51,467 nucleotides of DNA, from positions 1 through 51,467 of the forward strand of contig NZ_JAEMTF010000016.1 in assembly GCF_016462415.1 (NCBI RefSeq), written 5' to 3'. The position numbers and the translations under genes were made by a program. This document shows, piece after piece, positions 2,279-30,526 of the stretch. Each line of letters starts with the position of its first letter. Position 1 is the stretch's first letter. This DNA is from Williamsia sp. Lineage in GTDB: Bacteria; Actinomycetota; Actinomycetes; Mycobacteriales; Mycobacteriaceae. The notes beneath the pieces were generated by a model. The model saw only the letters and a list, made by a program, of their open reading frames with translations, made no database searches and was not told the origin of the DNA.

Positions 2279-3052
2279 ATGTCAGCCACGGTGGCCTTCG
2301 ACGATCATCTGCGGGCGATCGGTGCGGCGACCGGTCGCATGACCGCGGCGGCCCTGGCCGCGGGTCCCGACGCCCCGGTGCCGACGTGCCCGGAGTGGAC
2401 CGTCGCCGACCTCCTCGCCCACCAGGGCATGGTGCACCGGTGGGCACACGCCCACATCACCGCGACCGAGCCGCCGTTCGCCGACGTGGACGCCGTTCTC
2501 GCCGAGGTCGATCCCGACGAACTACCGGAGTGGCTCGCCGAGGGATCCGACGAGCTCGTCGACGCACTCTCGGCGGCGCCTGCCGATCTCGACGCCTTCG
2601 TGTTCATCGAGACCGGGCGGACCCCGTTGGAGTTCTGGGCCCGTCGTCAGGCCCACGAGACGACCATCCACGCACTCGACGCCATCTCTGCCGCCCGGGG
2701 CGAGATCCCGCCGCCCACGGCCATGGGCGTGACGCCGGCGTTCGCCGCCGACGGACTCGACGAGCTGGTCGTCAGCTTCCTGTCCCGCGGCCGATCCAAG
2801 CTCTATGACGGCGCGCCGTTCCGCATCGTGATAGCCCCCGACGACACCGACCACGCCTGGACCCTGCGGGTCACCGAATCCGCCCTCACCGCCGAGCGTG
2901 AGCTCGACGACTACGCCGAGGTCTGGTGGAGCGGCGCCGCGGCCGCGTTGTACGCCGGGTTGTGGAACCGCGGCGGTGACATCACCACCGCCCGGGGTGA
3001 CGCCGCCGTGTTGGAGAACTGGCACAGCCGACACCGCATACGAGGACGATGA
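2279..3052 (+). CDS. Maleylpyruvate isomerase-family mycothiol-dependent enzyme
   Basis: A 257-residue member of the MDMPI/DinB-like fold. The N-terminal half is a four-helix bundle with the PTCPEWTVADLLAHQGMVHRW segment split across residues of helix 1-2 and a metal-binding HExxxHxxD pattern in AHETTIHALDA. The C-terminal half (from about 180) looks like the MDMPI_C domain. Family members use mycothiol as thiol cofactor for isomerisation or conjugation of electrophiles. Its stop overlaps the next gene's start (ATGA at 3049-3052), so it is translationally coupled to the VOC gene. The start at 2279 has no clear Shine-Dalgarno. The specific reaction is unknown; the neighbouring epoxide hydrolase suggests electrophile detoxification. 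Confidence 0.85.
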   Translation: MSATVAFDDHLRAIGAATGRMTAAALAAGPDAPVPTCPEWTVADLLAHQGMVHRWAHAHITATEPPFADVDAVLAEVDPDELPEWLAEGSDELVDALSAAPADLDAFVFIETGRTPLEFWARRQAHETTIHALDAISAARGEIPPPTAMGVTPAFAADGLDELVVSFLSRGRSKLYDGAPFRIVIAPDDTDHAWTLRVTESALTAERELDDYAEVWWSGAAAALYAGLWNRGGDITTARGDAAVLENWHSRHRIRGR

Positions 3053-3804
3053 GTACTTTCGAAGTTCGCTGGCTGACCGCATTCCTCGACTTCCCCGCCG
3101 ACGAGTTCGGCAGCGAGGTCACGTTCTGGCGCGCCATCGCGGGCAGCACCGTCTCACCGCCGCGCGGTGACAAGCGACAGTTCGCGACGCTCGAGCCGTT
3201 CAACGGCGACCCGCACCTCCGCGTCCAGCGTCTCGAATCAGGCGACGGTGGCGTGCATCTCGACCTGCACGTCGACGATCTCGAGGCCGCGGTGGTCGAG
3301 GCCGGCCGACTCGGCGCCGAGGAGGTACACCGGTACCCGGACGTGGTGACGATGCGCTCGCCGGGCGGTTTCGTCTTCTGCCTGGTGCCCTGGGAGGGGC
3401 AGAAGACCCGGTCGCGTCCGATCCGCTGGCCGGGCGACACGATCAGCATCATCGACCAGGTCAGCATCGACATCCCGGCCCGCGTGTTCGAGACCGAATG
3501 CGAGTTCTGGCAACGACTGACCGGGTGGGAGCTGACCGACAACGACAGCCCCATGTTCCGCCATCTCGACCGCCCGAACCACATCACCATCCGGATCCTG
3601 CTGCAGCGCATCGATTCCGGCGAGATCGGCGGCCATGTCGACCTCGCCAGCACCCATCCCGCCGACGAGGTCTCCCGTCATGAGGACTGGGGCGCGGAGG
3701 TGCTCGCCGAGTTCCCGAACTGGACGGTGATGGCCGACCCGACCGGTCGCCGCTACTGCATCACCTCGCGCAATCCGCGCACGGGCGAACTCCCCACCGC
3801 ATGA
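3049..3804 (+). CDS. VOC-superfamily protein with two glyoxalase-like domains
   Basis: A 251-residue tandem VOC-fold protein. Residues about 1-125 and 130-250 each follow a beta-alpha-beta-beta-beta pattern, with GGVHLDLHVDDLEAAV in the first half and GGHVDLAS in the second. Each half ends in a strand of the type MRSPGGFVFCLVPW or MADPTGRRYCITS. Such proteins include glyoxalases, thiol transferases, dioxygenases and antibiotic-binding proteins. The metal ligands are not conserved enough for me to assign a reaction. Start and stop overlap the neighbouring genes by ATGA, so the three genes 2279-4784 form a tight operon. Confidence 0.8.
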   Translation: MSTFEVRWLTAFLDFPADEFGSEVTFWRAIAGSTVSPPRGDKRQFATLEPFNGDPHLRVQRLESGDGGVHLDLHVDDLEAAVVEAGRLGAEEVHRYPDVVTMRSPGGFVFCLVPWEGQKTRSRPIRWPGDTISIIDQVSIDIPARVFETECEFWQRLTGWELTDNDSPMFRHLDRPNHITIRILLQRIDSGEIGGHVDLASTHPADEVSRHEDWGAEVLAEFPNWTVMADPTGRRYCITSRNPRTGELPTA

Positions 3805-4790: not shown

Positions 4791-5891
4791 TCAGCCCGCC
4801 GGATGGGCTCGGTGGAACTCGGTCAGGCGTTGCGCCTCGTCGTCCAATGCCCGTGCGTCCGAGGCACTCACCGCGGCCAGCGGCTCGATCCGTACCGCTC
4901 CGGTGTCGTCGGCCGACCAGCGTGCGACGACACGGCCGTCGACCAGTCCCAGCCCGGGCATCAGACCGTTCGGGGTGACGAGCTGGGCGTACACCTCGTC
5001 GTCGATGATGCGGCGCCGGTCGGCCTGGGCGGTGACGACGTTGTCGAACGGGGCGAGCAGTCGTGCCGGGGCGGGTTCGTCGGCGTCGATGATGTCGATG
5101 CCGTCGAGGTCGAACAGTTCGACGCCGTCGGGGCCACGGAAGCGGTTGAGCTCCCAGTCGGCCTCCATCGCCTCCACCAGTGGGCGGAGTCGGGTCATGC
5201 CCGCCCAGGTCTGGATGCCCTTGATCGTCGACGGCCCGAACCCCCGTAGGTAGAGCCGGATCAGATCCTTTCGGGCCTCGTCGCCGACGACCGCGGGCTC
5301 GCCGGGACCGACCCAGTCGTCGAAGAGTCGGTACGTGGCGGTGGCATGACCGTTCCACAGCCCGCGCGGCGGGACCTGGACCAGCGGCAGCGTGCACCGC
5401 GCGACCGCGGTGAGGGTCGACGGCGCGTCGTCGGGCCACCGCGCCACCAGCTTCTGTCCGAGCTCTCGCGCGGTGAGTGCGCCGCCGGACAGCAACTCTC
5501 GGGCGTGGGCGGTGATCTCGGGTGCGGTCGCGTCGACCAGACGCCTCAGATGATTACTGCGGACCTCGCCCTCCATCGCCGCCTGGGCCAGAGGACGGAC
5601 CCAGCGCGCGTCCTGCGAGTCCATCAGGAACACCGTGCTGCGCAGCAACGCCATCCGCACGACCTCGCGGTCGGTCATCAGGTCGTCGAGCTCGGCGGGG
5701 TCGAATCCGTCGATCCGCGACCACAATCCGTAGAACGCGGCCCGCGGATCCTGCGACTGGAGGCCGACGCACCGGTCGAGGACCTCGACGGCGTCCTCGT
5801 CGACCCGACTCAGCAGGTGTTGGCGTGCGAGCAACGTCCGGTTCCACTGCCCGAGGGTGACCTCGCCCGCCACCGGCGCATCAGCGGCCAT
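4791..5891 (-). CDS. AlkZ-family winged-helix DNA glycosylase-like protein, fourth gene of the jet operon
   Basis: A 366-residue HTH_42 (PF06224-type) protein, the family of Streptomyces AlkZ and E. coli YcaQ, which remove bulky alkylated bases and unhook interstrand crosslinks. Family features are LARQHLL (21-27), CVGLQSQDPRAAFYGLWSRI with Q45-x-Q47 at the place of the catalytic Q-x-Q motif, a DREVVRMALLRSTVFL strand, GLWNGHATATYRLFDDW, YLRGFGPSTIKGIQTWAG and LLAPFDNVVTAQADRR. The start at 5891 lies four bases after the jetC stop, so it is almost certainly co-transcribed with jetABC. It occupies the place where Wadjet operons carry the JetD nuclease (DUF3322/DUF2220), with which it shares no visible motif. 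That it acts with JetABC is inference. Confidence 0.85.
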   Translation of the reverse strand: MAADAPVAGEVTLGQWNRTLLARQHLLSRVDEDAVEVLDRCVGLQSQDPRAAFYGLWSRIDGFDPAELDDLMTDREVVRMALLRSTVFLMDSQDARWVRPLAQAAMEGEVRSNHLRRLVDATAPEITAHARELLSGGALTARELGQKLVARWPDDAPSTLTAVARCTLPLVQVPPRGLWNGHATATYRLFDDWVGPGEPAVVGDEARKDLIRLYLRGFGPSTIKGIQTWAGMTRLRPLVEAMEADWELNRFRGPDGVELFDLDGIDIIDADEPAPARLLAPFDNVVTAQADRRRIIDDEVYAQLVTPNGLMPGLGLVDGRVVARWSADDTGAVRIEPLAAVSASDARALDDEAQRLTEFHRAHPAG

Positions 5892-5895
5892 CGTG

Positions 5896-8800
5896 TCAGC
5901 GTCCGCCGGTCGAACGGGCCGATGCGATCTCGCCGAACGTCGCCGTGCGCGCGTCGGATCGGGCGCCGTCGGCGTCCACCCGTTTGTCGACGAGGATGAC
6001 CTGGCCGATGAACGGTTCCACGATGCCCGCCATGCGGATGGGGGCGGCGATGATGAGCTGGAACCCGAACTGTTCGAACGCGCGCAACGACTGACTGGAG
6101 AACGTCTCGTCGGACTTGCTGAACGCCTCGTCGAGCATGAGCGGGGCGAACCCCGGCCGGTGGTCGTCCGGGCTGCTCAGCGAGAAGCTCAGTGCCGCAG
6201 CGAGACAGAACGCCACGAGTTTTTCCTGCTCACCACCGGAGTTCGTGGCGGTGTTGCGGTAGGTGTGCACCGGCGGCGCGTCGGCGCCGTCGGCCACCGA
6301 CATCTCCTTGCCGTAGAAGAAGTAGCTGTTGCGGACGTCGAGGACGTTGTCGCACCAGCGGCGTCCCTCGGTGTCGGTGGCGGTGAGCCGCACGATGAGG
6401 TTCTTGATCCGGTAGAACTGTCGGGCCAACACGGCGCCGTCACCCGAGCGCGCCGAGGGTGCGTCCCGGATCATCGCGTCGACGATGCGGCCGAACTCCA
6501 TCGCCTCGTCGGTCGGGTTGTGCTGCACCGCGATCTGCAGGTACGTGCCGGTGTTGAAGTCGACGCGACGCAGACCGGAGTTGACCTCGGCGATGCCACG
6601 GCGGATCCGCTTGTTGGTGTCGCCGATCTCCTTGTAGAGGTTCGACACCGAGTGCGAGATGTCGGTGGTGATGAGCTGCCGGAACCGTTCCTGGGTGGTG
6701 GCCAGACCGTGTTCGACGAGACCGGAGTGGATCGAGACGAGGTCGCTCGCGCACTCGATGGTCGCGGTGAGATTGTTCGCCGCGGACGGCCATTCTCGGA
6801 CGAAGGCCTCCGCCGCCCGGACGATCCGGTTCTCCGCGGTGTCGCGCTCGGCGTTGGCGTCGGCCTGGACGGACTCGAGCGCGTTGCGCAGATCCGAGCG
6901 CACCTCGCCGTAGGTGGCCAACGTGAGGTGTTTCTGGCCGGTGGCGAGCACCGACTCCAGCACCCGCTCGAGGTACTCGCGGTCGTCGTCGGCGAGGTCG
7001 TCGGTCTCGGGGTTCTGTTCGAGTTCCGCGAGCCACCGGTCCCAGTCGGAGCCGATGTGCCGCAACTGGTCGTTGATCGCGCCGACCCGCGCGACCGCCT
7101 CACGCCAGTCGGCGCGCGCGATGTCGACCTGTTCCTCCAGCTCGGCGAGGTCGACACGGTTCTCGCGAACCGCGTCGATCCGGCGGTTGAGCTCGTCGGC
7201 GTCGCGGCGCGACGACCACCAGTTCAGCTCCGTCCACGACGAATAGCCGGCCAGGGCGTCGGCGGCCTTGGCGCGTTCGCGGTTGTCCTCCAAGAGGTCC
7301 CGCATGTCCTGCGAGATCTGCCTGGTCTCCTCGTACCGGTGCCGGAGCGCGCCCAGCGACTCCTCCAGCGCGGCCCGTTTGCCGTCGGTGTTGGTGCCGA
7401 ATATCCAGTGGGTGCGGTCGTCGACGCGGCGCCGGTCGTCCTTGCGGTAGCGATCACGACCCGCCTTGACCAATCCCTGCGGCGTGACCGCGAGATCGTG
7501 GCGATCGAGTTCGATGGGATTGTCGACGCAGGTGTGGTCGGCCGAGCGGGCCACGACCCCCGACAGCCAGGCGCCGGCGGGATGCGCTCGGTCGACGGTC
7601 ATCTTCGCCGCCAGCGACCCGGACCGCGGCACCTCGTGGGTCGCGTTCTCGTCGTAGGCGCGGAACTCGAGCACGCCGCCGAGATCGGTCTTGTTGACGA
7701 ACTCCGCGACCCGTCGGCGGTGCTCGTGCGGCACCAGCAGGGTCATGCCGAGACCGCGCAGCACCCGTTCGGCCGCACCGGCCCACGTGGCGCGCTGGTC
7801 GTCGGCGACCTCGACGAGTTCCGCCGCGTACGGCAGCTCCTGCGCCGGGATACCGGTGGCCGTGGCGATGGCGTCGCGCTGGGCGAGCGCCTCGCGCGGC
7901 AGCAGCGACCGGCGTGCCGTGAGCGTCGCCAACTCCTCGGCGACGGCCTCGTGTTCTCGTCGGGCGTCGGTCTCGGCGCTGAACACCGGATGGGCCCGTG
8001 CGTTCAGCGACTCCGCCGCCTCCCGTGCCGCCCGCGCCATCTGCGGTGCGCGACCACGCAGCGCCTCGAACTCCTCCCGCGACTCCGGGGTCCGCTCACC
8101 GAGGCGAGACACCACCGCCGAATACCGCTCGTAGGCGCGGTTCCGCGCGGTCACCTGCGCCTCGAAGGACTTCAGTTCCGACTCCAGCGCCGTCAGCTCA
8201 CCCTTGTCGACCGTGAGCTGGTCGCGCAGCGAGGTGTGCCGGTCCTCGCGCTCGTCGGCGATGTTCTCCCACGACGCGACCTCGTTATCGAGGGCGGTGC
8301 GTGCATCCTCGATGTGATCGAGTTTCTCGCGCAGCAACGTCATCCGGTGCTCGCGCATGAACGCCCGCATCGGCGGACCCAACAGTTCGCCGGCGCGGGT
8401 CGTGGATTCCTCCGCCCCGCAATAGGTCTCCCACGCCTCCGGGATCGGGCGCAGCACCTTCTCCTGTGCGTGCGCCCGCGCCGCCGCCTGGTACGCCTCG
8501 TCGAGCTGGGTGAAGTTCTCCACCAACCGCTCGGCCTTGGCGTAGGTGTCGGGGCGGTCGAGCATGTAGGTACGGATGAAGAGGTTGAGGTCGCCGACGT
8601 TCTTCATCGCCTTGGCCTTGCCCATCAGCGACAGCGCCGCCGACGAACTGCCGATGCCCACGCGCCGGCGCAGCGCCTCGGAATAGGCGCTCTGCACGTC
8701 GAAGCATGCGACGTCGGGATGGGTGGCGCGGTAGGCACGGATGTCGAAACCGCCGGTGGCCCAGTCGTTGAGGCTCAGCAGTTCGACGTCGCCGGTGTGC

Positions 8801-9312
8801 AGTTGGTACCACGACCGCAGGGTGGCACCGTCGTTGCCGGACCCGGGGAACCACTTGATGGCGATCGCGGTGGTCACCGAACCGGCGCCGTTGTCGTACG
8901 TCGCGGCGATCGCCGACCAGGTGGCGCCGGTACCACGCAGGTACTGCACCTGCGACTGGTTGTACTCGTCGTCGTTCTCCGCCCAGGCGCCGCGCACGTA
9001 GTCGGCCATCGACCGCGCCGCGCGCTTCGCGCCCTTGGCGGTGAGGTCGGCCGAGGCGTTGAAACCCTGGTCGTAGGTGGGCAGCAGGACAACCGAGTGC
9101 CCGTCCATCATCGAGGACTTGCCCGACCCGGACGGGCCGGTCAGCAGCACACCGCGTTCATCGATCGGAAAGTTCTTGTAGCCGTGGAAGGTTCCCCAGT
9201 TGACCAACTGGATACGGGTCAACCGGAACTGTCCGATGTTGATCGTTCGCCGATGCTGCCCGCTCTCCGACGGCAGAGTCGTCGGAAAGGTATCTGCGAT
9301 CGTGTCGGTCAT
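5896..9312 (-). CDS. jetC: JetC/MksB-type SMC ATPase of a Wadjet-like system
   Basis: A 1138-residue SMC-like ATPase, the motor of the JetABC/MksBEF (EptC in M. smegmatis) DNA-loop-extruding complexes that restrict plasmids. It has an N-terminal head strand FRLTRIQLVNWGTFHG and Walker A GPSGSGKS (59-66). Long Glu/Arg-rich coiled-coil arms run from about 270 to 950 around a central hinge-like region. The C-terminal signature SGGEQEK begins at 1025, and Walker B LMLDEAFSKSD has Asp1061 and Glu1062. Length is typical. Its start overlaps the jetB stop (ATGA at 9309-9312). All ATPase motifs are intact, so it is not a decayed gene. The equally long open frame on the opposite strand is a GC-bias artefact. 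Confidence 0.93.
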   Translation of the reverse strand: MTDTIADTFPTTLPSESGQHRRTINIGQFRLTRIQLVNWGTFHGYKNFPIDERGVLLTGPSGSGKSSMMDGHSVVLLPTYDQGFNASADLTAKGAKRAARSMADYVRGAWAENDDEYNQSQVQYLRGTGATWSAIAATYDNGAGSVTTAIAIKWFPGSGNDGATLRSWYQLHTGDVELLSLNDWATGGFDIRAYRATHPDVACFDVQSAYSEALRRRVGIGSSSAALSLMGKAKAMKNVGDLNLFIRTYMLDRPDTYAKAERLVENFTQLDEAYQAAARAHAQEKVLRPIPEAWETYCGAEESTTRAGELLGPPMRAFMREHRMTLLREKLDHIEDARTALDNEVASWENIADEREDRHTSLRDQLTVDKGELTALESELKSFEAQVTARNRAYERYSAVVSRLGERTPESREEFEALRGRAPQMARAAREAAESLNARAHPVFSAETDARREHEAVAEELATLTARRSLLPREALAQRDAIATATGIPAQELPYAAELVEVADDQRATWAGAAERVLRGLGMTLLVPHEHRRRVAEFVNKTDLGGVLEFRAYDENATHEVPRSGSLAAKMTVDRAHPAGAWLSGVVARSADHTCVDNPIELDRHDLAVTPQGLVKAGRDRYRKDDRRRVDDRTHWIFGTNTDGKRAALEESLGALRHRYEETRQISQDMRDLLEDNRERAKAADALAGYSSWTELNWWSSRRDADELNRRIDAVRENRVDLAELEEQVDIARADWREAVARVGAINDQLRHIGSDWDRWLAELEQNPETDDLADDDREYLERVLESVLATGQKHLTLATYGEVRSDLRNALESVQADANAERDTAENRIVRAAEAFVREWPSAANNLTATIECASDLVSIHSGLVEHGLATTQERFRQLITTDISHSVSNLYKEIGDTNKRIRRGIAEVNSGLRRVDFNTGTYLQIAVQHNPTDEAMEFGRIVDAMIRDAPSARSGDGAVLARQFYRIKNLIVRLTATDTEGRRWCDNVLDVRNSYFFYGKEMSVADGADAPPVHTYRNTATNSGGEQEKLVAFCLAAALSFSLSSPDDHRPGFAPLMLDEAFSKSDETFSSQSLRAFEQFGFQLIIAAPIRMAGIVEPFIGQVILVDKRVDADGARSDARTATFGEIASARSTGGR

Positions 9313-10151
9313 CGGTCGTCCTCGTTCTCGTTCTCATCCGGTTCCGCCTCGTCGAGCGCATCGGCGTCGGTGACGGGTTCGTCGAGCTCGGCGAGGTCGG
9401 GTCCGCCGCCGGCCAGCGTGCGGTAGGCCGTCGTGTAGGCCTGCACCTGCTCCGGCGTCAGCAGGGACGCGATCACCCCGTAGATCGCGTACCGGTCGGT
9501 TCCGGGCAGCGCGCGGATGATCTTCCGGTTCTCCAGGACGTTGATGGCCGCGTCGATCCGGCGGACGAAGCCGGACTCGTCGGTGTCGCGGACGGGCTTG
9601 AACGTGAGCATGTGATCGACCATCTCCGACCGCTCCACCGTCACGGTCTCGTCGACGCCGGTGAGGTACTTCTGCCGGAGGAACAGCGCGAGTACCGACG
9701 CCGCGAGCGTGAGGGTGGAGGCGCGCAGGATGTTGCGTTGGCGCGGCTCGGGTTCGGTGATCTGCCGGGTGTAGGCGTACCGGTGCTCGGCGTTGATCTC
9801 CAGGCCGAGGTTCAGCTCCGACAGACGCGACCGGATGATCTCCTCGTTGGCCTCGATCGCGCGCCAGTTCCGCGACTTCGCCGAGACGTGGGCAGCGGAG
9901 ATGAGTTCCTGCAACGCGTAGCAGACGGGCGCGGGCAGCGCCGAGGTGTCGCCGTCGAACCGCGGTGCGACGCGTGATTCCGAGACGTCGCCGACCGGCG
10001 CCGACCCGTCGAAACTGAAGTGCGACAAATCGATCGACGAATCCGCCTCGGCACCGGGGTGGTCGACGAACAGGTCGTCGCCGGTCTGCTCTGGGTGCTC
10101 GGCGTCTTCTGTGTCGATCTCTTCGGTGTCGATCTCTTCTGGGGCGGTCAT
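9309..10151 (-). CDS. jetB: JetB/MksE-like DUF4194 protein of a Wadjet-like system
   Basis: A 280-residue protein of the DUF4194 (JetB, MksE) family, a winged-helix kleisin partner that binds the SMC complex. The conserved core is about residues 75-245 (YALQELISAAHVSAKSRNW, then LNLGLEINAEHRYAYTRQI, then ASVLALFLRQKYL, then GVIASLLTPEQV). It is flanked by strongly acidic tails. Tail residues 6-16 come from a 15-bp tandem duplication at 10111-10140 that encodes EEIDT twice. The start at 10151 is chosen because it overlaps the jetA stop (ATGA) and because the upstream frame is low-complexity shadow. Translational coupling to jetA and jetC indicates stoichiometric production. Confidence 0.88.
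   Translation of the reverse strand: MTAPEEIDTEEIDTEDAEHPEQTGDDLFVDHPGAEADSSIDLSHFSFDGSAPVGDVSESRVAPRFDGDTSALPAPVCYALQELISAAHVSAKSRNWRAIEANEEIIRSRLSELNLGLEINAEHRYAYTRQITEPEPRQRNILRASTLTLAASVLALFLRQKYLTGVDETVTVERSEMVDHMLTFKPVRDTDESGFVRRIDAAINVLENRKIIRALPGTDRYAIYGVIASLLTPEQVQAYTTAYRTLAGGGPDLAELDEPVTDADALDEAEPDENENEDDR
10111..10140. repeat. 15-bp tandem duplication inside jetB
   Basis: Two copies of GTGTCGATCTCTTC(G/T) lie head to tail at 10111-10125 and 10126-10140. They encode the duplicated EEIDT unit of the JetB acidic N-terminal tail and keep the frame, so the repeat can expand or contract without breaking the gene. Confidence 0.8.
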
Positions 10152-11674
10152 CGACGACCTCCCTTCGCGTCGTCGAGCAGGTGGACCGCGGTGGGGATCG
10201 GCACCCCGGTGAGTGCGGGCAGTTCGGTCGTGAACGTCATTGCGGGGATGTGGATCTCGCGTACCCCGCGCGCGGTGTGCGCGCCCACCACAGTGCGTAC
10301 GGCGGCGGTGTCGACCTCCCCGTGGCGCTGGGCCAGCGACCACACCCCGACGATGTCGCCGACGCGCGGCGACCCGATGTGCGCGAGCACCGCGGCGAGG
10401 TCGGCCGTGCCGGAACGCACCGCCGCGTTGACCGCGTCGGTGAGCACCTGCCAGTCGATGGTCTCCGATCCGACCAACTCGGCCGGGTCGATCTCGATCT
10501 CACCCGCGGTGACCTCGACCCCGTCGGGGATGTCGATGACGCCGTCGTGCATCGACAGCGCGCCGACGGAGTTGGTGTCCGCGACGGCCATCGGGACCAC
10601 GATGCCCATGTCCCGACCTGCGCCTGCGTGCTCGAACGCCACGGCGGCGGCCCGCTGCGCCTCGCCGATCTGCTCACGCAGCGCGCGGTAGTGCAGGAAG
10701 TCGCCACCCTTGACGAAGGTGTTGATGCGTCGGTACACCTGGCCGCGTATCTCGTCGACGTGCTGCACCTCGTCCCACATCCGATCGATGAACCGGGCGA
10801 GGGTGTCGGCGAGGTCCGGCGGGAGATCGGGCAGCCCGGAGAGGATGTCGTCGATGTGCCGCTCGAGGCCCTCGCGGAGGCGATGATCCGAGATCAGCGT
10901 GTAGAAGGCGTCGAATGCGTTGCCCTCCGCGGTTTTTCCCAGTTCGTCGTGGCCGTCGAACATCCGGTTCAGGGCATCGGCGTAGGCCCCGGCCCGCTCG
11001 TCGAGACCCTGGGTGATCAGCGCCCGCGAGTTCTCCCGCAGCTTCTCGCCGTAGCCGATGATGTCGGCGGGCATCCGCTCGGCCAGCGAGGTGACCATGC
11101 GGATGTCGTCGAACAGGCGGCGGGCGTCGACCGCGGGCACCGCACCGGCGGCCAGCTCCGACCGACGCCGGGTGAGCTCGGCGATCTTGGCGTCGAGATC
11201 CCGGATGTGTTCCCCCGGATCGGGATTGATCGCGACCGCGATGTTCGACAGTCGGCCGATCACCATCTCCATGGCCGTCTCGGTGGCCACCGATCGGTCG
11301 TGCCGGACGGCCTGCACCTGGGTGATGGCCGTGGTGGCACCACGGGTCAGCTGATAACGCTCCACATGACGGTCGGGGTCGAGGCTGCGCGCGACGAACC
11401 CGTCCTTGACCCACCGGTCCAGGAGTTCGACGGGACCGGGCACACTGAGCCCACGATCGGTCCAGTGCGCGGCGAGGTCGGCCAGGTCGGCGTCGATGCC
11501 GTCGGCGAGGTGGTCGCCGTCGACCTGCCCGTCGGACAGACGCGCGGCCATCATCGCCAGGTAGACCATCGCGCTGCGCGACCGCAGCAGCCGCAGCGTC
11601 ACGTCGGCATCGGCGTTCTCGGAGAACGCGGCGTAGAGAGTCGCAGCACTGTCACGCTCATTGCTGCGGGCCAT
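10148..11674 (-). CDS. jetA: JetA/MksF-like DUF3375 kleisin of a Wadjet-like system
   Basis: A 508-residue DUF3375 (JetA, MksF) protein, the kleisin-type subunit bridging the SMC heads. The N-terminal winged-helix part (about 1-130) includes TLRLLRSRSAMVYLAMM and LLDRWVKDGFVA. It is followed by a helical part with DLDAKIAELTRRRSELAAG, then RRLFDDIRMVTSLAERMPADI. The C-terminal winged-helix part begins around residue 300 with NTFVKGGDFLHYRALREQIGEA. The start at 11674 is preceded by AGAGGTGAG and fits the family's N-terminus; the upstream frame is not coding. It is the first gene of the leftward operon jetA-jetB-jetC-alkZ-like, with a TATCCT -10-like element about 70 bp upstream on the minus strand. 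Confidence 0.88.
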   Translation of the reverse strand: MARSNERDSAATLYAAFSENADADVTLRLLRSRSAMVYLAMMAARLSDGQVDGDHLADGIDADLADLAAHWTDRGLSVPGPVELLDRWVKDGFVARSLDPDRHVERYQLTRGATTAITQVQAVRHDRSVATETAMEMVIGRLSNIAVAINPDPGEHIRDLDAKIAELTRRRSELAAGAVPAVDARRLFDDIRMVTSLAERMPADIIGYGEKLRENSRALITQGLDERAGAYADALNRMFDGHDELGKTAEGNAFDAFYTLISDHRLREGLERHIDDILSGLPDLPPDLADTLARFIDRMWDEVQHVDEIRGQVYRRINTFVKGGDFLHYRALREQIGEAQRAAAVAFEHAGAGRDMGIVVPMAVADTNSVGALSMHDGVIDIPDGVEVTAGEIEIDPAELVGSETIDWQVLTDAVNAAVRSGTADLAAVLAHIGSPRVGDIVGVWSLAQRHGEVDTAAVRTVVGAHTARGVREIHIPAMTFTTELPALTGVPIPTAVHLLDDAKGGRR

Positions 11675-12842: not shown

Positions 12843-13508
12843 TCAGGCGGGGTATCTCAGCCCGGTGGCCGAATGGCAGCGATATCCGTGCGGGTTCTTC
12901 GCGAGGTACTGCTGGTGGTAGTCCTCGGCGTAGTAGAACCGTCCGCTGCCCGCCTGCGCGAGCGGCTTCACCTCGGTCGTGACCTCGCCGATGCCCGCGG
13001 CGCGGACCACACCGGCGAACTTCTCCGCCGACGTCCGCGCGACGGCCGCATCGGCGTCGTCGAACGTGTAGATCGCCGATCGGTACTGCGTCCCCACGTC
13101 GTTGCCCTGACGCATCCCCTGCGTCGGGTCGTGGGTCTCCCAGAAGATCGCGAGGATGCCCTCGAGGTCGATGACCGCCGGGTCGAAGACCACCAGCACC
13201 GCCTCGGTGTGCCCGGTCCGCGCGCTGCACACCTCGCCATAGGACGGGTTGGGCGTGAAGCCACCCGCGTAACCGACAGCGGTGGAGTACACGCCCGGCA
13301 CCTGCCAGAAGATCTCCTCGACACCCCAGAAACAACCGCCGGCGAGGATGACCGTCGAATACCTCGGGTCGAACGGGCCGCTGATCGGATGGCCGTTGAC
13401 GACATGGCGGTCGGCCACGGGGACCGCCTCCGATCGCCCGGCCAACGCCTTGTCCTCCGAGATCAGTTCCCTCTTGCGGTGTCCGAGAAGCTGATGGAAC
13501 CAGGTCAT
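12843..13508 (-). CDS. msrA: Peptide methionine (S)-S-oxide reductase
   Basis: A 221-residue MsrA, which repairs oxidised methionine in proteins using thioredoxin as electron donor. The catalytic motif GGCFWGVEE places Cys59 as the active cysteine. Further family elements are VGYAGGFTPNPSYGEVCSARTGHTEAV, split over the substrate pocket, and the DPTQGMRQGNDVGTQYRS region. The C-terminal YYAEDYHQQYLAKNPHGYRC provides a likely recycling Cys. An N-terminal extension of about 50 residues (MTWFHQLLGH) precedes the catalytic domain, which is common in actinobacteria. An alternative ATG lies nine bases upstream at 13517. Its closeness to sodA groups two oxidative-stress functions, although they are divergent and not one operon. 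Confidence 0.93.
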   Translation of the reverse strand: MTWFHQLLGHRKRELISEDKALAGRSEAVPVADRHVVNGHPISGPFDPRYSTVILAGGCFWGVEEIFWQVPGVYSTAVGYAGGFTPNPSYGEVCSARTGHTEAVLVVFDPAVIDLEGILAIFWETHDPTQGMRQGNDVGTQYRSAIYTFDDADAAVARTSAEKFAGVVRAAGIGEVTTEVKPLAQAGSGRFYYAEDYHQQYLAKNPHGYRCHSATGLRYPA

Positions 13509-13588
13509 GGGAGTCATGCTACGCACGGCGTACCGCCGCGATTTGGCCCGCGAACCCGGCGTGCCTATGATGGCGATCACAGCCCTGG

Positions 13589-13604
13589 TGTGACCGTTCT
13601 CACG
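13589..13604. promoter_or_regulatory. Crp/GlxR-like site upstream of a small membrane protein gene
   Basis: The 16-mer reads TGTGA-N6-TCACG and differs from the actinobacterial Crp/GlxR consensus TGTGA-N6-TCACA only at the last base. It lies about 30 bp before the GTG start of the small gene at 13633. One near-match in 51 kb could be chance, so this is a candidate only. Confidence 0.35.
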
Positions 13605-13632
13605 GCCGCGTCGACGACGACAGGAGAAGTGA

Positions 13633-13788
13633 GTGGCCACGCAGTCCCACCCCGATCTGATCCGCACCCTCGGTCGACACAACCGTCCCGCGACGCGTGA
13701 GGACTTCAACATCCGCGCCCGCTGCATCACCACGGGCGCCAGCGTCCTCGCCCTCGTCGCGCTGCTGATCGCACTCATCCTGCTCTGA
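13633..13788 (+). CDS. Small single-pass membrane protein (51 aa)
   Basis: A GTG-started frame preceded by a good Shine-Dalgarno sequence (AGGAGAAG). Residues 1-30 are polar and basic (ATQSHPDLIRTLGRHNRP). Residues 34-51 form one hydrophobic helix (GASVLALVALLIALILL) that ends exactly at the stop. Third codon positions are almost all G or C. I do not recognise a family. It sits between msrA and sodA and is probably a cytoplasm-facing small membrane protein with a C-terminal anchor. Confidence 0.65.
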   Translation: MATQSHPDLIRTLGRHNRPATREDFNIRARCITTGASVLALVALLIALILL

Positions 13789-13840
13789 GCCGCCTGCTCC
13801 GCGCGCTCACCTGCCCAGACACGGGTAGCGACGGACTGGC

Positions 13841-13872
13841 TTGACTTCAACCATGGTTGAAGTCCCTATGCT
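13841..13872 (+). promoter_or_regulatory. MerR/SoxR-type promoter of sodA with a perfect palindromic operator
   Basis: A -35 element TTGACT (13841-13846) and a -10 element TATGCT (13867-13872) are separated by an overlong 20-bp spacer. Most of the spacer is a perfect 22-bp palindrome (13843-13864, half-site GACTTCAACCA). The long spacer with a central dyad is the hallmark of promoters activated by DNA distortion by MerR-family proteins. The half-site CTTCAA resembles the SoxR half-site CCTCAA. It points to sodA, 88 bp downstream of the -10. No merR/soxR gene lies in the window. Confidence 0.7.
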
Positions 13873-13960
13873 CGACTCTGTTGCATTACCCCCGCCCCTA
13901 CGTAGGCTGGGCAAGTACACAGCGACCACAACGGGTAGAGCCCCCGAGGAGAGGAACAAC

Positions 13961-14590
13961 GTGTCTGACTACACCTTGCCGGATCTGGACTACGACTACG
14001 CGGCACTCGAGCCGCACATCTCCGGCAGGATCATGGAGTTGCACCACAGCAAGCACCACGCCACCTACGTCAAGGGCGCGAACACCGCACTGGAGAAGGC
14101 CGCCGCAGCTCGCGAGGACGGGACCATCGCGGACAAGGTCTTCCAGCTCTCGGCGAACCTCGCGTTCCACCTCGGTGGCCACACCAACCACTCGATCTTC
14201 TGGAAGAACCTGTCGCCCAACGGTGGCGACAAGCCCGAGGGTGACCTCGCAGCCGCCATCGACGACCAGTTCGGCGGGTTCGACAAGTTCCAGGCGCACT
14301 TCACCGCCGCGGCCACCACGCTGCAGGGCAGCGGCTGGGCGATCCTCGGATACGACACCATCGAGGGCAAGCTGGTCATCCAGCAGCTCACCGACCAGCA
14401 CGGCAACACCTCGATCGGTCTCGTGCCGATCGTCATGCTGGACATGTGGGAGCACGCCTTCTACCTCGACTACCAGAACGTCAAGCCGGACTACGTCAAG
14501 GCATGGTGGAACGTCGTGAACTGGGCCGACGCCGGCGAGCGTTTCGCCAAGGCGCAGAGCCAGGGCAAGGGCCTCATCGTCGGAGCCTGA
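13961..14590 (+). CDS. sodA: Superoxide dismutase, Mn/Fe family
   Basis: A 209-residue Mn/Fe superoxide dismutase, converting superoxide to oxygen and hydrogen peroxide. Metal ligands are His28 ([13 protein letters not shown]), His77 ([10 protein letters not shown]), Asp161 and His165 ([14 protein letters not shown]). The second-shell His147 (LTDQHGN) is the residue seen in the mycobacterial enzyme. The GTG start at 13961 is preceded by GAGGAGAGG. There is no Sec signal peptide; mycobacterial SodA is exported without one. A 17-bp-stem terminator follows directly. Metal preference (Fe or Mn) cannot be settled from sequence. It corresponds to Rv3846 of M. tuberculosis. Confidence 0.96.
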
Positions 14591-24320: not shown

Positions 24321-24401
24321 CGTTGACCTCTTCCGCGCGTGGAACCCCTGCGTCGGCGTTGTGGTCGTGAGGGACGCAGGTGGTCACTACTGTCTACTAC
24401 C

Positions 24402-27400
24402 ATGGCCGGACTCACCTCGCTCATCCCGACCAGGTCCACCACCCCCACCGACGACTCCGCCGGCACCCGCCGCGACTCGGTCGAGCGGTCGGTACGCGTG
24501 CTCGACCGCATCCGGACGCCGCGCGGGATCGGCGGCCGGGCTCCGCACCACGCGGGCCTCGTGGTGGGGACACTGGCCGCCATCTCCCTGATCAGCAGCG
24601 TCTCGGTGACCTTTCGCCACGTCATCGCGATACCGCGTGACTGGGTGGACCGCTACGTCATCTCCGCGCCCGACACCAGCTTCGCCTGGGCGTTCGTGCT
24701 GGCCCTGCTGGCCGTCGCGATCTCGGCCCGAAAAAGGGTGGCGTGGTGGCTGACCGCGCTGTACCTGCTGCTCTTCGCCGGCACCAACGCGCTGCTGCTG
24801 GTCCCGGAGATCGGTCGTGAATACGACGTCACCATGGCCGGTCGGATCAGCCTGGTCATCGGACTCAGCATCGACGCCGCCGTGCTGGTGTTCCTGGCGA
24901 TCACCTACCGGCAGTTCTACACACGCGTGCGCCGTGGCGCGCTGCTCAAGGCGTTGGCGGTGCTCGCCGGTGGCCTGCTGGCCGCCACGCTCGTCGGCTG
25001 GGGTCTGGTCGAGGCCTTCCCCCGCAGCCTCACCGCCGACCAGCGACTCGCCTACGCGTTCAACCGGGTGGTGACGTTCTCCTCGGTGGACAAGGGCACC
25101 TTCGACGGCAACCACACCTATACCGTCATCAACTCGCTCCTCGGTCTGCTGGGCGCGCTCGCGCTGATCCTCGCCGCGATCGTGCTGTTCCGATCGCAGC
25201 GACTCGCGGGCCTGCTGACCCCCGCCGACGAACGACTCATCCGCGCCCTCATCGACACCTACAACGACGACGACTCGCTGGCGTACTTCTCCACCCGGCG
25301 CGACAAAGCGGTCGTGTTCGCGCCGAATGCGCACGCCGCCATCACCTATCGCGTCGAGGTGGGTGTGTGCCTGGCCAGCGGCGACCCCATCGGCGACCCC
25401 CGACACTGGCCGGATGCGATCGCCGAGTTCCTCCAACTGTGCGAGCGCTACGGCTGGCATCCCGCCGCGATGGGGGCCAGCGAACGCGGCGCCACCGCAT
25501 TCTCCGCGGCCGGGATGACCGCGCTGAACATCGGCGACGAGGCCATCGTCGACACCCGCTCCTACAGCCTGGCCGGGCCGGACATGCGCGGTGTGCGTCA
25601 AGCCGTGACCCGATGCCTGCGTGCGGGCATCACCGTGCGGATACGTCGTCACGGCGACCTGTCCGACGCCGAGATGGCGGGTGTGACCGAGCGCGCCGAC
25701 GCCTGGCGGGACACCGACGAGGAGCGCGGGTTCGCCATGGCGTTGAGCCGTCTCGGGGACCCACTCGACGACGACTGCCTGCTGGTGGAGGCGGTCGCGG
25801 ACGCGGGCACCGCCGGCGAGAAGGTCGTCGGGATGCTGTCGTTCGTCCCCTGGGGCCGCACCGGCGTCTCCCTGGACCTGATGCGTCGCGACCGCGGTTC
25901 GATCAACGGGATCGTCGAGACCATGGTCACCGAACTGGCCACCAACGCGGCGACGTTCAACATCACGCGGATCTCGCTGAACTTCGCGGCCTTCCGCGAG
26001 GTGTTCGCCCACGGCGAGAAGATCGGCGCCGGACCGGTGATGAAGGGCGCGCACGGTGTCCTCACCTTCGCGTCGCGGTTCGTGCAGATGGAGTCGCTCT
26101 ACCGGTCCAACGACAAGTACCTGCCCACCTGGACCCCGCGATTCCTCTGCTGCGAGGACGCGCGACTGATCCTGCGGGCCGGTATCGCCGCGATCGTGAC
26201 CGAGGGGTTCGTCACCCTGCCGCAGTTCCGCCGCGACACCCGCGCGCACGTCGGCACGCAGTGCGCGATCCCGGACGGGCTCGACGCCGACATCGTCGTC
26301 GCCGAGATCGCCCAGGACGCCCTGACCCGTTCGGAGGGCGTACGCCGGCCCGAGCAGGTCCGGGTCCGACTCGACAAGTTGGCGGCGATGTCGACGGCCG
26401 GGGTCGAGGCCTACCCGTCCGCGCGGGCCCCGTCGCACGCGATGGCCGACGCACTGGCCGAGACCGAGGGCACCGACGTCCGCGTCGCCGGCCGCGTCCT
26501 GCGCCTACGGGACCTCGGCAAGGTCGTCTTCGCCGACGTGCGGGACTGGACCGGCTCGGTCCAGGTGGTACTCGATGCCGCGGTCTTGGCCGGCGAGACC
26601 GTCTCGGGCGCTGTCGATTTCGCCCGTACGGTGGACCTCGGCGACCTGGTCGAGGTGACCGGCACGATGGGTCGCAGTCGCAGCGGCGAGTGGTCGGTGC
26701 TGGCCGCGGACTGGCGGATGATCGGCAAGTGCCTGCACCCGTTGCCCGACAAGTGGAGCGGGCTCACCGATCCGGAGGCCCGGGTCCGACAGCGTTACGT
26801 CGACCTCGCCATCGATCCGCGTGCCGGGGACCGACTGCGCACCCGCAGTCTGGCGGTGAAGTCCATGCGCGACTTCCTCTCCGACCGCGGCTTCCTCGAA
26901 GTGGAGACGCCGATCCTGCAGCGGATCCACGGCGGGGCCAACGCCGAGCCGTTCCGCACCCACATCAACGCCTATGACCTCGACCTGTACCTACGTATCG
27001 CACCCGAGCTCTACCTCAAGCGGTTGTGCGTGGGCGGGGTCGAGCGGGTCTTCGAGATCGGTCGGAACTTTCGCAACGAGGGCGTGGACTTCAGCCACAA
27101 CCCCGAGTTCACCAGCCTGGAGGCCTATCAGGCGCACGGCGACTACGACACGATGCTGCATCTGACCCGTGAGCTGATCCAGAACGCCGCCACCGCGGCA
27201 CACGGCAGCCCGATCGTGATGCGGCCCGGCCCCGACGGAGCGGTGCCGGTCGACATCTCCGGCGAGTGGCCCGTCGTCACGGTGCACGATGCGGTGTCGG
27301 CGGCGGCCGGCGAGCCCGTCGACGCCTCCACGGGAATCGAGCAGCTGCACACCATCTGTGACAGGCTGGCGATCGTCTATCGACCGGAATGGGATGCCGG

Positions 27401-27806
27401 CCAGATCGTGCTCGAGCTCTACGAGCACCTCGTCGAGGATCGGACCACCATGCCGACGTTCTACAAGGACTTCCCGACGTCGGTGTCGCCGCTGACGCGG
27501 TCCGATCCCGATTCCCCCGGCGTCGCCCAGCGATGGGATCTCGTCGCGTGGGGTGTCGAACTGGGCACCGCCTACAGCGAACTCACCGATCCGGTCGAGC
27601 AGCGATCCCGACTGACCGCGCAGTCCGAGCGAGCAGCCGGCGGCGACGCCGAGGCCATGGAACTCGACGAGGACTTCCTCACCGCGCTCGAGTACGCGAT
27701 GCCGCCGACCGGCGGTCTCGGCATCGGTGTCGACCGCGTCATCATGCTGATCACCGGCCAGTCCATCCGCGAGAGCGTCGCGTTCCCGCTGGCCAAACCC
27801 CGATGA
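24402..27806 (+). CDS. lysX: LysX: lysyl-phosphatidylglycerol synthase fused to lysyl-tRNA synthetase
   Basis: A 1134-residue bifunctional protein. Six to seven membrane helices lie between about 50 and 270 (the MprF-type flippase part). A cytoplasmic DUF2156 lysyl transferase domain follows at about 280-620 (with [17 protein letters not shown], then GMSAASERGA-like, and [11 protein letters not shown]). An OB anticodon domain covers about 690-780 ([25 protein letters not shown]). The class II LysRS catalytic domain runs from 800 to the end, with motif 2 [14 protein letters not shown] and motif 3 GLGIGVDRV. It charges tRNA-Lys and moves lysine to phosphatidylglycerol, giving resistance to cationic peptides and antibiotics. 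The ATG at 24402 has no Shine-Dalgarno, so it may be leaderless. The downstream hydrolase overlaps it by ATGA. Confidence 0.95.
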
Positions 27807-28711
27807 GCCGCCGGACAGCACTCACCGACCCCGTCGCGCTGCCCGGTCGTCTCGTCGAGATCGATGGACTGACAACCCACGTCCTGGTCGAGGGATCCGG
27901 CCCACCGGTGCTGCTGCTCGCGGCTCTGGGCAGCAACTGGTTCGACCTCGACCAGCTCGCCGACGAACTCGTCGACCGGTTCACCGTCATCCGGTACGAC
28001 CGGCCGGGGTACGGGGCCAGCGAATCCCTGCCCCGTGACCGGTTCCCCACGCTGCGCGGCGAGATCGACCGGATGGCAGCGGTTCTCGACGCGGCAGAGG
28101 TCACCGACCCCGTACTCATCGCCGCCCATTCGCTGTCGTCGCTCTACGCCGAGGCGTTCGCGCGGGATCGACCCGAGCGGACTGCCGCGGTGATGATGAT
28201 CGACGGGACGTTCGTGATGGTGCCGTGGCGGATCCTGCCCACCGCGCTCCGGGTCCGCAACTGCCACCGGGCGGTGCGGGTGGTCGACGCGCTGCGGCTC
28301 CCACAGCTAATGGGTCCCGCCGTACATGATTCGGTGTTGCCCACTCCCCCGGGCGGTTTCACCGCAGTTCAGCAGTTCTGGACGCGGGCGGTGTGCACCA
28401 CGACCACGATGCTGCGGGCCACGTTGGTGGAGAACGCGGCGTTCCCGTCGGTCAACGCCGACCTCATCGAGCTTCGTCGCCGACGGCCCGCCGTCGATGC
28501 CGCGGTCACGGTGGTGGCGGCACTCGCCGAGGCGGGCGGATGGCGGCGCTTCTGGCGCTGGCGTCAGGAACGCTACGCCGACATGCTCGGCGGCGTGTTC
28601 GAGGAGATCAGTCCCGCGAACCACTTCGTCGTGACCCAGCACCCGGCCGCGATGGGACTCATGATCACCCGACTCGCCCGGCGCGCAGGTCTTCTCGACG
28701 CCGACGCATGA
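27803..28711 (+). CDS. Alpha/beta hydrolase translationally coupled to lysX
   Basis: A 302-residue alpha/beta hydrolase without a signal peptide. Visible are [11 protein letters not shown] (after strand 4), a nucleophile elbow AAHSLSS with Ser110 (the usual G-x-S-x-G is altered to A-H-S-L-S) and a late His in ANHFVV. The middle lid (about 140-230) is rich in Arg. The start lies inside the lysX stop. In several bacteria aminoacyl-phosphatidylglycerol synthases are paired with hydrolases that remove the amino acid again, so a lysyl-lipid hydrolase or lipase role is a reasonable inference. It is predicted cytoplasmic or peripheral, whereas the known Pseudomonas hydrolase is periplasmic. Confidence 0.82.
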
Positions 28712-28718
28712 GTTGGGT

Positions 28719-28877
28719 CTAGAGGTTCAGCGCACGTAATTCGGCTGCGGTCGCCATCCGCTCACCGTCCTCCGGCCACAGCCGGGCGAGTCGGTGGCGG
28801 GCGATGACTCCCCCACCGATCGGTCCGAAGACCCGTGTTCGACGATGGCTGTTCGGTCTCACGTTCGTCAGCTTCAC
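28719..28877 (-). CDS. Possible small protein (52 aa), convergent with the lysX-operon hydrolase
   Basis: A GTG-started minus-strand frame of 52 codons, basic in the first half (RPNSHRRTR) and ending in an alpha-helical LWPEDGERMATAAELRALNL stretch. About three quarters of third positions are G or C, lower than neighbouring genes, and there is no clear Shine-Dalgarno. The C-terminal half looks protein-like, so it may be a real small gene or the relic of a longer one. I do not recognise it. Confidence 0.3.
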   Translation of the reverse strand: MKLTNVRPNSHRRTRVFGPIGGGVIARHRLARLWPEDGERMATAAELRALNL

Positions 28878-28911
28878 GGTGCGATCACATCCTGTGTCCG
28901 GTTGGTGTCCG

Positions 28912-28927
28912 TGTGACGCACGTTACA
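28912..28927. promoter_or_regulatory. Crp/GlxR-like site upstream of the SMP-30 gene
   Basis: TGTGA-N6-TTACA differs by one base from the Crp/GlxR consensus. It lies 125 bp before the SMP-30 gene, in the 174-bp spacer between that gene and the small minus-strand frame. GlxR-type regulators control carbon metabolism genes, which would suit a sugar lactonase. It is unproven. Confidence 0.35.
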
Positions 28928-29051
28928 GGTGTGACTCCACCGCACCGGCGTACGACACGCCCCGTTCGGCGGTTCCGATCCCACGAGACGCGGCCGTGAT
29001 CGTGCGGCCGAAGCCCCTCGCGCGGGTCGGTCACTGTGTTTCCATCGAGAC

Positions 29052-29933
29052 ATGAAACCTGATGCCACGGTCGTTCTCGACGGTTACACCTACTTCGAGT
29101 GCCCCCGGTGGCACGACGGCCGGGTGTGGGTGTCGGACTTCTACACCTTCGAGGTGCTCTCGGCGCGACCCGACGGCTCTGACGTCCGCGTGGAAGCGAC
29201 TGTGCCTCAGCAGCCGTCGGGCCTCGGGTGGCTCCCGGACGGACGTCTGCTCGTGGTGTCGATGCGCGATCACACCATCCTGCGACGCGAGGAGGACGGC
29301 TCGCTCGTCGTGCACGCCGATCTGTCTGAGCACGTGTCGGCCCACCTCAACGACATGCTGGTCGATGACCGCGGACGCGCCTACGTCGGCAACTTCGGCT
29401 TCGACCTGATGAATCAGGGCACCCCGGCCACCGCGAGTGTCATCCGCGTCGACCCGGACGGCTCGTCGACGGTCGTGGCCACCGACCTCTGGTTCCCCAA
29501 CGGCATGGCGTTGACCCCCGACGGCGAGCTGCTGGTCGACGAGACGCTCGCGAACCGGATCAGCGTGTTCGCCATCGACGACGCCGGCGACCTCGGCGAG
29601 CGTCGCGACTGGGCGACGTTCGGCGACCTCCCGGACATGACCGACATGGCGTCGGTGATGGGCGGGATACGGCTTGCCCCGGACGGCTGCGCCATCGACA
29701 CCGACGGATCGCTGTGGGTCGCCGACGCGCTCGGCGGACGTATCGCCCACGTGGTGGCCGGCCAGGGGGTGGTGGACCAGCTCGACTTCGGCAGCGGCGT
29801 GTTCGCCTGCGGCCTCGGCGGCGAGGACGGACGCACCCTCTTCGTCTGTGCGGCACCCGACTTCGACGAGCACGCTCGGAAGGTCGCCCGCGATGGCAAG
29901 CTCCTGGCGGTCCAGCTACCCGCGACGACGTGA
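29052..29933 (+). CDS. SMP-30/gluconolactonase/LRE-family lactonase
   Basis: A 293-residue six-bladed beta-propeller of the SMP-30 (regucalcin/gluconolactonase) family, which hydrolyses sugar or other lactones with a bound divalent metal. Expected ligands are Glu16 (FECPRWH), the Asn in LFPNGMA-like WFPNGMA, the Asn in HLNDML and the Asp in DTDGSLWVADALG. Propeller blade repeats such as VWVSDF, LLVVSM, AYVGNFGFD, LLVDETL and LWVADAL are visible. There is no signal peptide. The start at 29052 is the first ATG; no strong Shine-Dalgarno is seen. No sugar pathway genes flank it, so the substrate is unknown. Confidence 0.85.
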   Translation: MKPDATVVLDGYTYFECPRWHDGRVWVSDFYTFEVLSARPDGSDVRVEATVPQQPSGLGWLPDGRLLVVSMRDHTILRREEDGSLVVHADLSEHVSAHLNDMLVDDRGRAYVGNFGFDLMNQGTPATASVIRVDPDGSSTVVATDLWFPNGMALTPDGELLVDETLANRISVFAIDDAGDLGERRDWATFGDLPDMTDMASVMGGIRLAPDGCAIDTDGSLWVADALGGRIAHVVAGQGVVDQLDFGSGVFACGLGGEDGRTLFVCAAPDFDEHARKVARDGKLLAVQLPATT

Positions 29934-30011
29934 ACGGCACCCTCATTCGCCTGGCGTAACATCCGTACAGTACGGTCTACCCGACTTGCCAACCGATTCG
30001 GGGAGATGTTC

Positions 30012-30512: not shown

Positions 30513-30526
30513 ACGGCACCTACGAC

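What the first reader, a model, noticed from the sequence alone, without database searches (positions are those of the whole stretch)
4791..11674. Wadjet-like jetABC operon with an AlkZ-family DNA glycosylase in place of JetD
Seen: DUF3375 (JetA), DUF4194 (JetB) and SMC-like (JetC) genes linked by ATGA overlaps, all with intact motifs. Four bases after jetC starts a 366-residue HTH_42/AlkZ-type protein with a Q-x-Q motif (Q45, Q47). Known: in Wadjet/MksBEFG/EptABCD systems the fourth protein, JetD/MksG, is a Toprim-type nuclease that cuts plasmid DNA trapped by JetABC; AlkZ proteins excise modified bases and unhook crosslinks. Inference: the SMC loop-extruder may be coupled to base excision. 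This could recognise damaged or modified foreign DNA, or create abasic sites as the cutting signal. It may also be a chromosome-repair condensin and not an anti-plasmid system.
Basis: partly seen in the sequence, partly recalled or inferred. Interest (0 to 1): 0.85.

Follow-up and report, generated by a model that had tools for sequence, protein, structure and literature searches.

The report
Condensin operon with DNA-repair glycosylase gene
In Williamsia and close relatives a DNA-looping motor complex of the anti-plasmid Wadjet type, lacking the usual DNA-cutting partner, is encoded in one row with a DNA-repair enzyme; the row is real and old, but each half also lives without the other, so the repair enzyme is probably not a replacement cutter.

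Summary
The window carries a tightly packed minus-strand row jetA-jetB-jetC-alkZ (11674 to 4791), and its 99.98%-complete genome has no JetD match. The row is conserved: alkZ follows jetABC in 20 of 20 genomes with DUF3375 from Williamsia, Williamsia_A, W. sterculiae, Jongsikchunia and Gordonia jinhuaensis (17 read from sequence, 3 from coordinates).

"In place of JetD" is not supported. The same JetD-less jetABC type is in 16 of 16 Tsukamurella genomes; none of the 12 tested has JetD or this AlkZ. The same AlkZ persists at the same sodA-msrA locus, without jetABC, in 17 of 17 Gordonia loci. Trees nest Gordonia inside the linked clade, so jetABC was probably ancestral at this site and lost there while alkZ stayed. 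Among other actinobacterial jetABC checked (a cut list) only one AlkZ lay near, by chance. AlkZ shows no added domain and little sign of an interface.

Best reading: a core, nuclease-less, MksBEF-like condensin co-transcribed with an AlkZ-type glycosylase that removes bulky or crosslinked guanine adducts. The functions are separable; physical coupling is possible but unshown. My paper searches listed no description. New variant of a known kind, moderate interest.

The parts
10148..11674 (-). jetA (kleisin-type subunit, DUF3375), 508 aa
   Evidence: Pfam E 5.5e-96, PADLOC JetA1 825 bits, matches solved JetA 8q72/8as8/8dk1
9309..10151 (-). jetB (KITE-type subunit, DUF4194), 280 aa, 4-base overlap with jetA
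5896..9312 (-). jetC (SMC-like ATPase), 1138 aa, 4-base overlap with jetB
   Evidence: matches solved JetC 8dk2 and 8as8 over residues 28-1110; motifs
9115..9138 (-). Walker A of JetC (GPSGSGKS, residues 59-66)
4791..5891 (-). alkZ-like DNA glycosylase (PF06224, HTH_42), 366 aa, starts 4 bases after jetC stop
5751..5759 (-). catalytic Q-x-Q codons (Q45-S46-Q47) of AlkZ
   Evidence: both Gln invariant in 17 of 17 linked rows; aligned with QAQ of AlkZ 5UUJ
12843..13850 (-). msrA (ORF probably over-long at its start; PMSR domain residues 167-324), upstream flank of the block
13841..14590 (+). sodA (ORF probably over-long at its start), flank of the block
3049..3804 (+). glyoxalase-like gene, downstream flank shared with 14 of 17 Gordonia loci

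Best explanation
A four-gene operon made of two separable DNA-maintenance parts. (1) JetABC here is a nuclease-less relative of Wadjet/MksBEF: an ATP-driven SMC-like DNA-loop complex that is core in Tsukamurella and in the window's genus, so most likely acting on the chromosome (condensin or MksBEF role) and not cutting plasmids. (2) AlkZ is an AlkZ-like (AZL, Q-x-Q) glycosylase that hydrolyses the N-glycosidic bond of bulky or crosslinked alkylguanine, leaving an abasic site for base excision repair. Shown: gene order, intact motifs, no JetD match, conserved linkage, Gordonia loci with alkZ and without jetABC. Inferred: co-transcription, chromosome role, repair substrate, loss of jetABC in Gordonia (from trees). 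Not shown: any physical contact between the two.
For: No JetD_C in the genome nor in any of the 20 linked genomes. Core distribution: JetB of this type in 8 of 8 genomes of the window's genus and 16 of 16 Tsukamurella, 0 of 59 Gordonia (best 88.8 bits against 283-297 in Tsukamurella). JetC tree puts the linked and Tsukamurella copies in sister clades. In every one of 29 rows (19 genomes) an alkZ start codon lies between a 4-base overlap and 16 bases after jetC, while both outer borders vary. In 17 of 17 Gordonia loci alkZ stands between the rhodanese/GDPD genes and sodA without jetABC; outgroup sodA loci have neither alkZ nor jetABC (0 of 10). RpoB+RpoC and seven-protein trees nest Gordonia among linked lineages. 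Catalytic glutamines align with AlkZ 5UUJ; dN 0.050 and dS 0.362 for alkZ against W. maris show purifying selection.
Against: Four genes kept together for the age of the clade may mean a joint function and not only shared transcription. The chromosome role is inferred from distribution and JetD absence; I did not test whether these genomes also hold Smc-ScpAB. Descent of jetABC is not clean: in the JetC tree Jongsikchunia groups with Williamsia_A (SH-aLRT 99), unlike the species tree, and the Tsukamurella jetABC lies at another locus. With RpoB+RpoC alone the AU test does not reject one linked clade (p 0.0615). Transcript not shown; promoter scan found nothing. AlkZ substrate is by family only, and the sequence match to AlkZ is distant (profile E 2.2e-11; single sequence none at 0.001).
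Confidence: 0.64

Rival explanations
1. Lesion-repair condensin: JetABC physically recruits or presents DNA to AlkZ, for example an extruder stalled at an interstrand crosslink hands it to the glycosylase.
For: Linkage in 20 of 20 genomes, near-zero spacing, block stays intact while the flanks are rearranged. 9 AlkZ columns are invariant when linked but variable in Gordonia against 3 the other way.
Against: AlkZ is kept without jetABC in Gordonia; jetABC without this AlkZ in Tsukamurella; no extra domain or tail in linked AlkZ and one fixed difference only; the 9-to-3 contrast is small and scattered along the sequence; among listed PF06224 matches in 78 genomes with DUF3375 only one lay near a jetA, by chance.
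Confidence: 0.2
2. AlkZ replaces JetD as effector of an anti-plasmid or anti-phage system: it makes abasic sites in trapped or modified foreign DNA.
For: Position of the gene is that of mksG/jetD in the known operon; no JetD in the genome. A DNA glycosylase (Brig1) is a proven anti-phage enzyme (PMC11078745, passages).
Against: Core and not patchy distribution; locus is housekeeping (sodA, msrA, GDT1); AlkZ kept without jetABC in Gordonia; Brig1 is of the uracil-glycosylase superfamily, not AlkZ-like; PADLOC has no match for the protein.
Confidence: 0.07
3. Chance neighbours: two unrelated genes that happen to be adjacent and have not been separated.
For: Each half is found alone in related lineages.
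Against: Spacing is kept at operon distance over lineages whose AlkZ is only 56-65% identical to the window's, and no gene has entered the jetC-alkZ gap in any of the 17 genomes read there.
Confidence: 0.09

Closest known systems
Wadjet type I (JetABCD / MksBEFG / EptABCD)
   Same: JetA, JetB and JetC families, gene order and overlaps, JetC ATPase motifs; sequence matches to solved JetA and JetC chains
   Different: No JetD/MksG match in the genome; core distribution in a housekeeping locus
[quoted passage not shown] review PMC10586767, passages)
   Same: SMC, kleisin and KITE without the nuclease; a chromosome role is reported there
   Different: Different lineage; here a glycosylase gene follows. 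PMC10123090 (passages) draws an mksFEBG operon with MksG for P. aeruginosa PA14, so the two papers do not describe it alike
AlkZ-like (AZL) glycosylases of the HTH_42 family (PMC9040887, passages)
   Same: Pfam PF06224 over the whole profile, Q-x-Q motif aligned with AlkZ 5UUJ
   Different: Middle residue is Ser, not the aliphatic of the described motif; lies in a sodA-msrA locus behind jetABC (I ran no search for biosynthetic clusters)
Brig1 anti-phage DNA glycosylase (PMC11078745, passages)
   Same: DNA glycosylase; Wadjet genes were in the vicinity of its gene
   Different: Uracil-glycosylase superfamily, whereas AlkZ is built of winged helix-turn-helix motifs

Membership tests
Wadjet type I | JetA, JetB, JetC of the DUF3375, DUF4194, MukB-like families in order | tested here: met
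Wadjet type I | JetD (JetD_C/Toprim) nuclease | tested here: not met
   0 matches in the own genome; 0 of 20 linked genomes. Only the JetD_C model was searched, not the N-terminal one
Wadjet type I | Cleavage of circular plasmid DNA / plasmid restriction | not testable with these tools
   needs an experiment
Wadjet type I | Patchy, horizontally spread defence gene (usual, not strictly defining) | tested here: not met
   8 of 8 in genus, 16 of 16 Tsukamurella; JetC tree largely but not wholly in line with descent
MksBEF-like condensin | SMC-kleisin-KITE set without nuclease | tested here: met
MksBEF-like condensin | Role in chromosome organisation | not testable with these tools
   needs deletion and Hi-C or segregation assay
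AlkZ-like (AZL) glycosylase | PF06224 over the full length | tested here: met
   residues 38-359 on profile 1-329 of 329
AlkZ-like (AZL) glycosylase | (Q/H)-aliphatic-Q catalytic motif | tested here: inconclusive
   Q45 and Q47 invariant in 17 of 17 linked rows, but the middle residue is Ser in 15 and Ala in 2, so the aliphatic middle is not strictly met
AlkZ-like (AZL) glycosylase | Excision of bulky or crosslinked alkylguanine | not testable with these tools
   needs an assay

The most novel reading that the evidence does not exclude
JetABC-AlkZ is one machine: a loop-extruding SMC complex that finds or holds interstrand-crosslinked or bulky-adduct DNA and delivers it to a docked glycosylase, a base-excision counterpart of the Wadjet nuclease complex; Gordonia would have gone over to an uncoupled AlkZ after losing it.
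Probability: 0.16. Interest if true: 0.85.

Novelty: new variant of a known kind. Interest (0 to 1): 0.42.

Why it matters
It gives a natural test of what a Wadjet-type complex does once its nuclease is gone: a core, JetD-less jetABC in Tsukamurella and Williamsia, with an apparent clean loss in Gordonia at a syntenic site. If AlkZ is coupled to it, SMC loop extrusion and crosslink unhooking would be joined in one operon; if not, it is a warning that the gene in the jetD position need not be the effector.

Tried and rejected
Rejected: AlkZ as a lone local oddity (linkage in 20 of 20 genomes). Rejected: jetABC inserted late beside a pre-existing msrA-alkZ pair, my own first reading of the Gordonia synteny. 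The RpoB+RpoC tree has Gordonia nested (linked group whole in 0 of 200 bootstraps), with only middling support for the branches concerned (81-92), and its AU test was p 0.0615. Adding SodA, AlkZ, GDPD, rhodanese and GDT1 gave branch support 98/97 and p 0.0046. That set was chosen after seeing the first tree, so the p-value is not that of a plan. Whether alkZ and jetABC entered this locus together or one after the other in the stem is not resolved.

Looked for independent AlkZ-jetABC pairs: 78 genomes with DUF3375 (74 of other groups, 4 Tsukamurella) searched with PF06224. Its match list is cut at the weak end, so for most of the 14 genomes of group g4, for example, no position was seen. Among listed matches, compared by eye with the jetA positions, one lay within 20 kb (G580, about 5 kb upstream of jetA); glycogen-metabolism-type genes stand between, one on the other strand: taken as chance. 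Phylum scan for DUF3375: 16 of 396 genomes at E 1e-30.

Looked for a docking feature in linked AlkZ: none in length (355-366 aa matched against 355-365 in Gordonia); one fixed difference; 9 against 3 contrast columns, not mapped on the model. Promoter and terminator scan: nothing above shuffles. The AlphaFold model is fair (mean pLDDT 78.3, pTM 0.74) and was not compared with the PDB. Paper searches: no title or abstract start in their listings speaks of jetABC with AlkZ, or of Wadjet or MksB in Williamsia or Tsukamurella (one search listed 15 of 44 papers). I read passages only, of PMC10586767, PMC10123090, PMC9040887, PMC11078745, PMC3156402 and PMC3035257.

Second copies of one genome and the near-copies L043 and L044 were left out of the AlkZ and JetC trees; L100 too; the JetC tree also leaves out L045, L049 and L055.
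Full report
What is there. The minus strand from 11674 to 4791 holds jetA (508 aa), jetB (280 aa), jetC (1138 aa) and an AlkZ-like gene (366 aa). Pfam, PADLOC and PDB sequence matches agree on the families. jetA/jetB and jetB/jetC overlap by 4 bases, and alkZ starts 4 bases after the jetC stop. JetC has its Walker A, signature and Walker B motifs. AlkZ has Q45-S46-Q47, aligned by a profile of 16 Williamsia-clade sequences with the Q-A-Q of solved AlkZ 5UUJ (E 2.2e-11); the single sequence finds no solved chain at E 0.001. No JetD_C domain is found in the 4.95-Mb genome.

Names. The whole-genome collection is unnamed. Group g30 is Tsukamurella: contig G082:C1 is 4,379,918 bases, the chromosome length of the T. 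paurometabola type strain (PMC3156402, passages). Group g9 is Gordonia: contig G660:C1 is 5,208,602 bases, which equals the 5,290,012-base G. bronchialis genome less its 81,410-base plasmid (PMC3035257, passages). Gordonia jinhuaensis falls in a group of its own (g7).

Who has it. By coordinates, alkZ follows jetABC on the same strand in 20 of 20 genomes with DUF3375: the window's genus (8), Williamsia_A (9), and one each of the groups of Jongsikchunia, G. jinhuaensis and W. sterculiae. In 17 of the 20 the row was read from fetched sequence; in G070, G104 and G132 only from coordinates. None of the 20 has a JetD_C match. In one search, 17 of the 19 loci show the four-gene row. An alkZ start codon lies between a 4-base overlap and 16 bases after jetC in every one of 29 rows (10 of them second copies of one genome); some rows have further in-frame starts inside jetC. 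The outer borders vary: between alkZ and the glyoxalase gene there are 26 to 2500 bases where that gene is found, and msrA is the next marker on the other side in only 6 of 22 rows (three of these rows are second copies).

JetABC without AlkZ. The same JetB type is in 16 of 16 Tsukamurella genomes. Twelve of these were tested and none has JetD or an AlkZ at E 1e-20; in four genomes searched with PF06224, other AlkZ-family genes exist but the listed ones lie far from jetABC. After jetC a PIG-L deacetylase-type gene follows at once in two of four Tsukamurella loci (L054, L064) and about 3.8 kb on in the two others (L030, L065) (Pfam run on L054 only). The Tsukamurella jetABC is not at the sodA locus: the two lie on different contigs in G036, and no sodA was found within some 12-15 kb on either side in G082 and G113. 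In the JetC tree the linked and Tsukamurella copies form sister clades, but inside the linked clade Jongsikchunia groups with Williamsia_A, unlike the species tree (SH-aLRT only, long branches among the others). So descent is likely but not clean.

AlkZ without JetABC. In Gordonia the same AlkZ (47-66% identical to the window's) is in 17 of 17 genomes tested, including G015, which has no JetA match. In 17 of 17 fetched loci it lies at the same place as in Williamsia: msrA (16 of 17) and sodA on one side, rhodanese and GDPD genes and in 14 of 17 a glyoxalase on the other, with no jetABC between (GDPD not reached in L096). No Gordonia genome of 59 has this JetB type (best 88.8 bits). 42 of 59 have some JetB match; in the seven jetABC loci that I fetched (L056-L062) JetC is of a different type, with no JetD beside it. 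Of the 17 Gordonia genomes, 5 have a JetD_C match somewhere. In ten outgroup sodA loci, one Tsukamurella included, neither AlkZ nor jetABC is present.

Which came first. RpoB+RpoC places Gordonia inside the linked group, beside G. jinhuaensis and W. sterculiae, with Jongsikchunia outermost, with middling support. Linked genomes form one side of a branch in 0 of 200 bootstrap trees and in 1% for the AlkZ tree. The AU test was p 0.0615 with RpoB+RpoC and 0.0046 with seven proteins, AlkZ among them, a set chosen after the first tree. So jetABC and alkZ were probably together at this site in the common ancestor, and Gordonia lost jetABC and kept alkZ. The order of their arrival in the stem is open.

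Is AlkZ tied to JetABC. Shared transcription is likely from spacing and is inferred only. Linked and Gordonia AlkZ have similar length, one fixed difference, and 57 shared invariant positions; 9 columns are invariant when linked and variable (over 1 bit) in Gordonia, 3 the other way. alkZ is under purifying selection in the pairs tested from both groups. One Gordonia copy, L096, has lost both motif glutamines. Among the listed PF06224 matches in 78 genomes with DUF3375, one lay near a jetA, with other genes between.

How it works. JetABC: ATP-driven SMC-like loop complex without the cutting subunit. From its core distribution and housekeeping locus I infer a chromosome role, as reported for MksBEF that probably lost JetD (PMC10586767, passages). 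AlkZ: hydrolysis of the glycosidic bond of bulky or crosslinked guanine adducts, leaving abasic sites (PMC9040887, passages). Nothing found points to plasmid cutting or to abasic sites as a defence signal. In C. glutamicum the kleisin MksF binds the nuclease MksG (PMC10123090, passages); whether JetA binds AlkZ is untested.

Verdict. It is a new variant of a known kind: a nuclease-less Wadjet-type condensin operon with an AlkZ-like glycosylase as fourth gene, not described in the titles or abstract starts that my searches listed.

Noticed in passing
L056-L063, L066, L067 (Gordonia and other groups): A second jetABC type (JetC about 470-540 bits to the window's) sits at other loci; none of the 20 linked genomes has a second DUF3375 match above the cut-off, which looks like replacement in Gordonia.
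   Followed up: partly
L096 (G086): The Gordonia AlkZ copy on the longest Gordonia branch has lost both catalytic glutamines.
   Followed up: partly
L054, L064, L030, L065 (Tsukamurella): A PIG-L deacetylase-type gene lies directly after, or about 3.8 kb after, jetC, on the same strand.
   Followed up: no
L044: Record titled Kitasatospora arboriphila carries a locus 94-100% identical in five proteins to Williamsia muralis; the record is probably mislabelled.
   Followed up: partly
L053: Contig titled Acidobacteriaceae bacterium carries a jetABC 76-83% identical to that of Tsukamurella sp. 8F; probably wrongly binned.
   Followed up: partly
G102, G205: JetA scoring as high as those with JetD (about 490 bits) but no JetD_C match in the genome; the nuclease may be lost or divergent.
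   Followed up: no
window 24339-36679: LysX-like gene (lysyl-tRNA synthetase with phosphatidylglycerol lysyltransferase) and glutamate synthase genes: ordinary core chromosome among the ORFs scanned.
   Followed up: no
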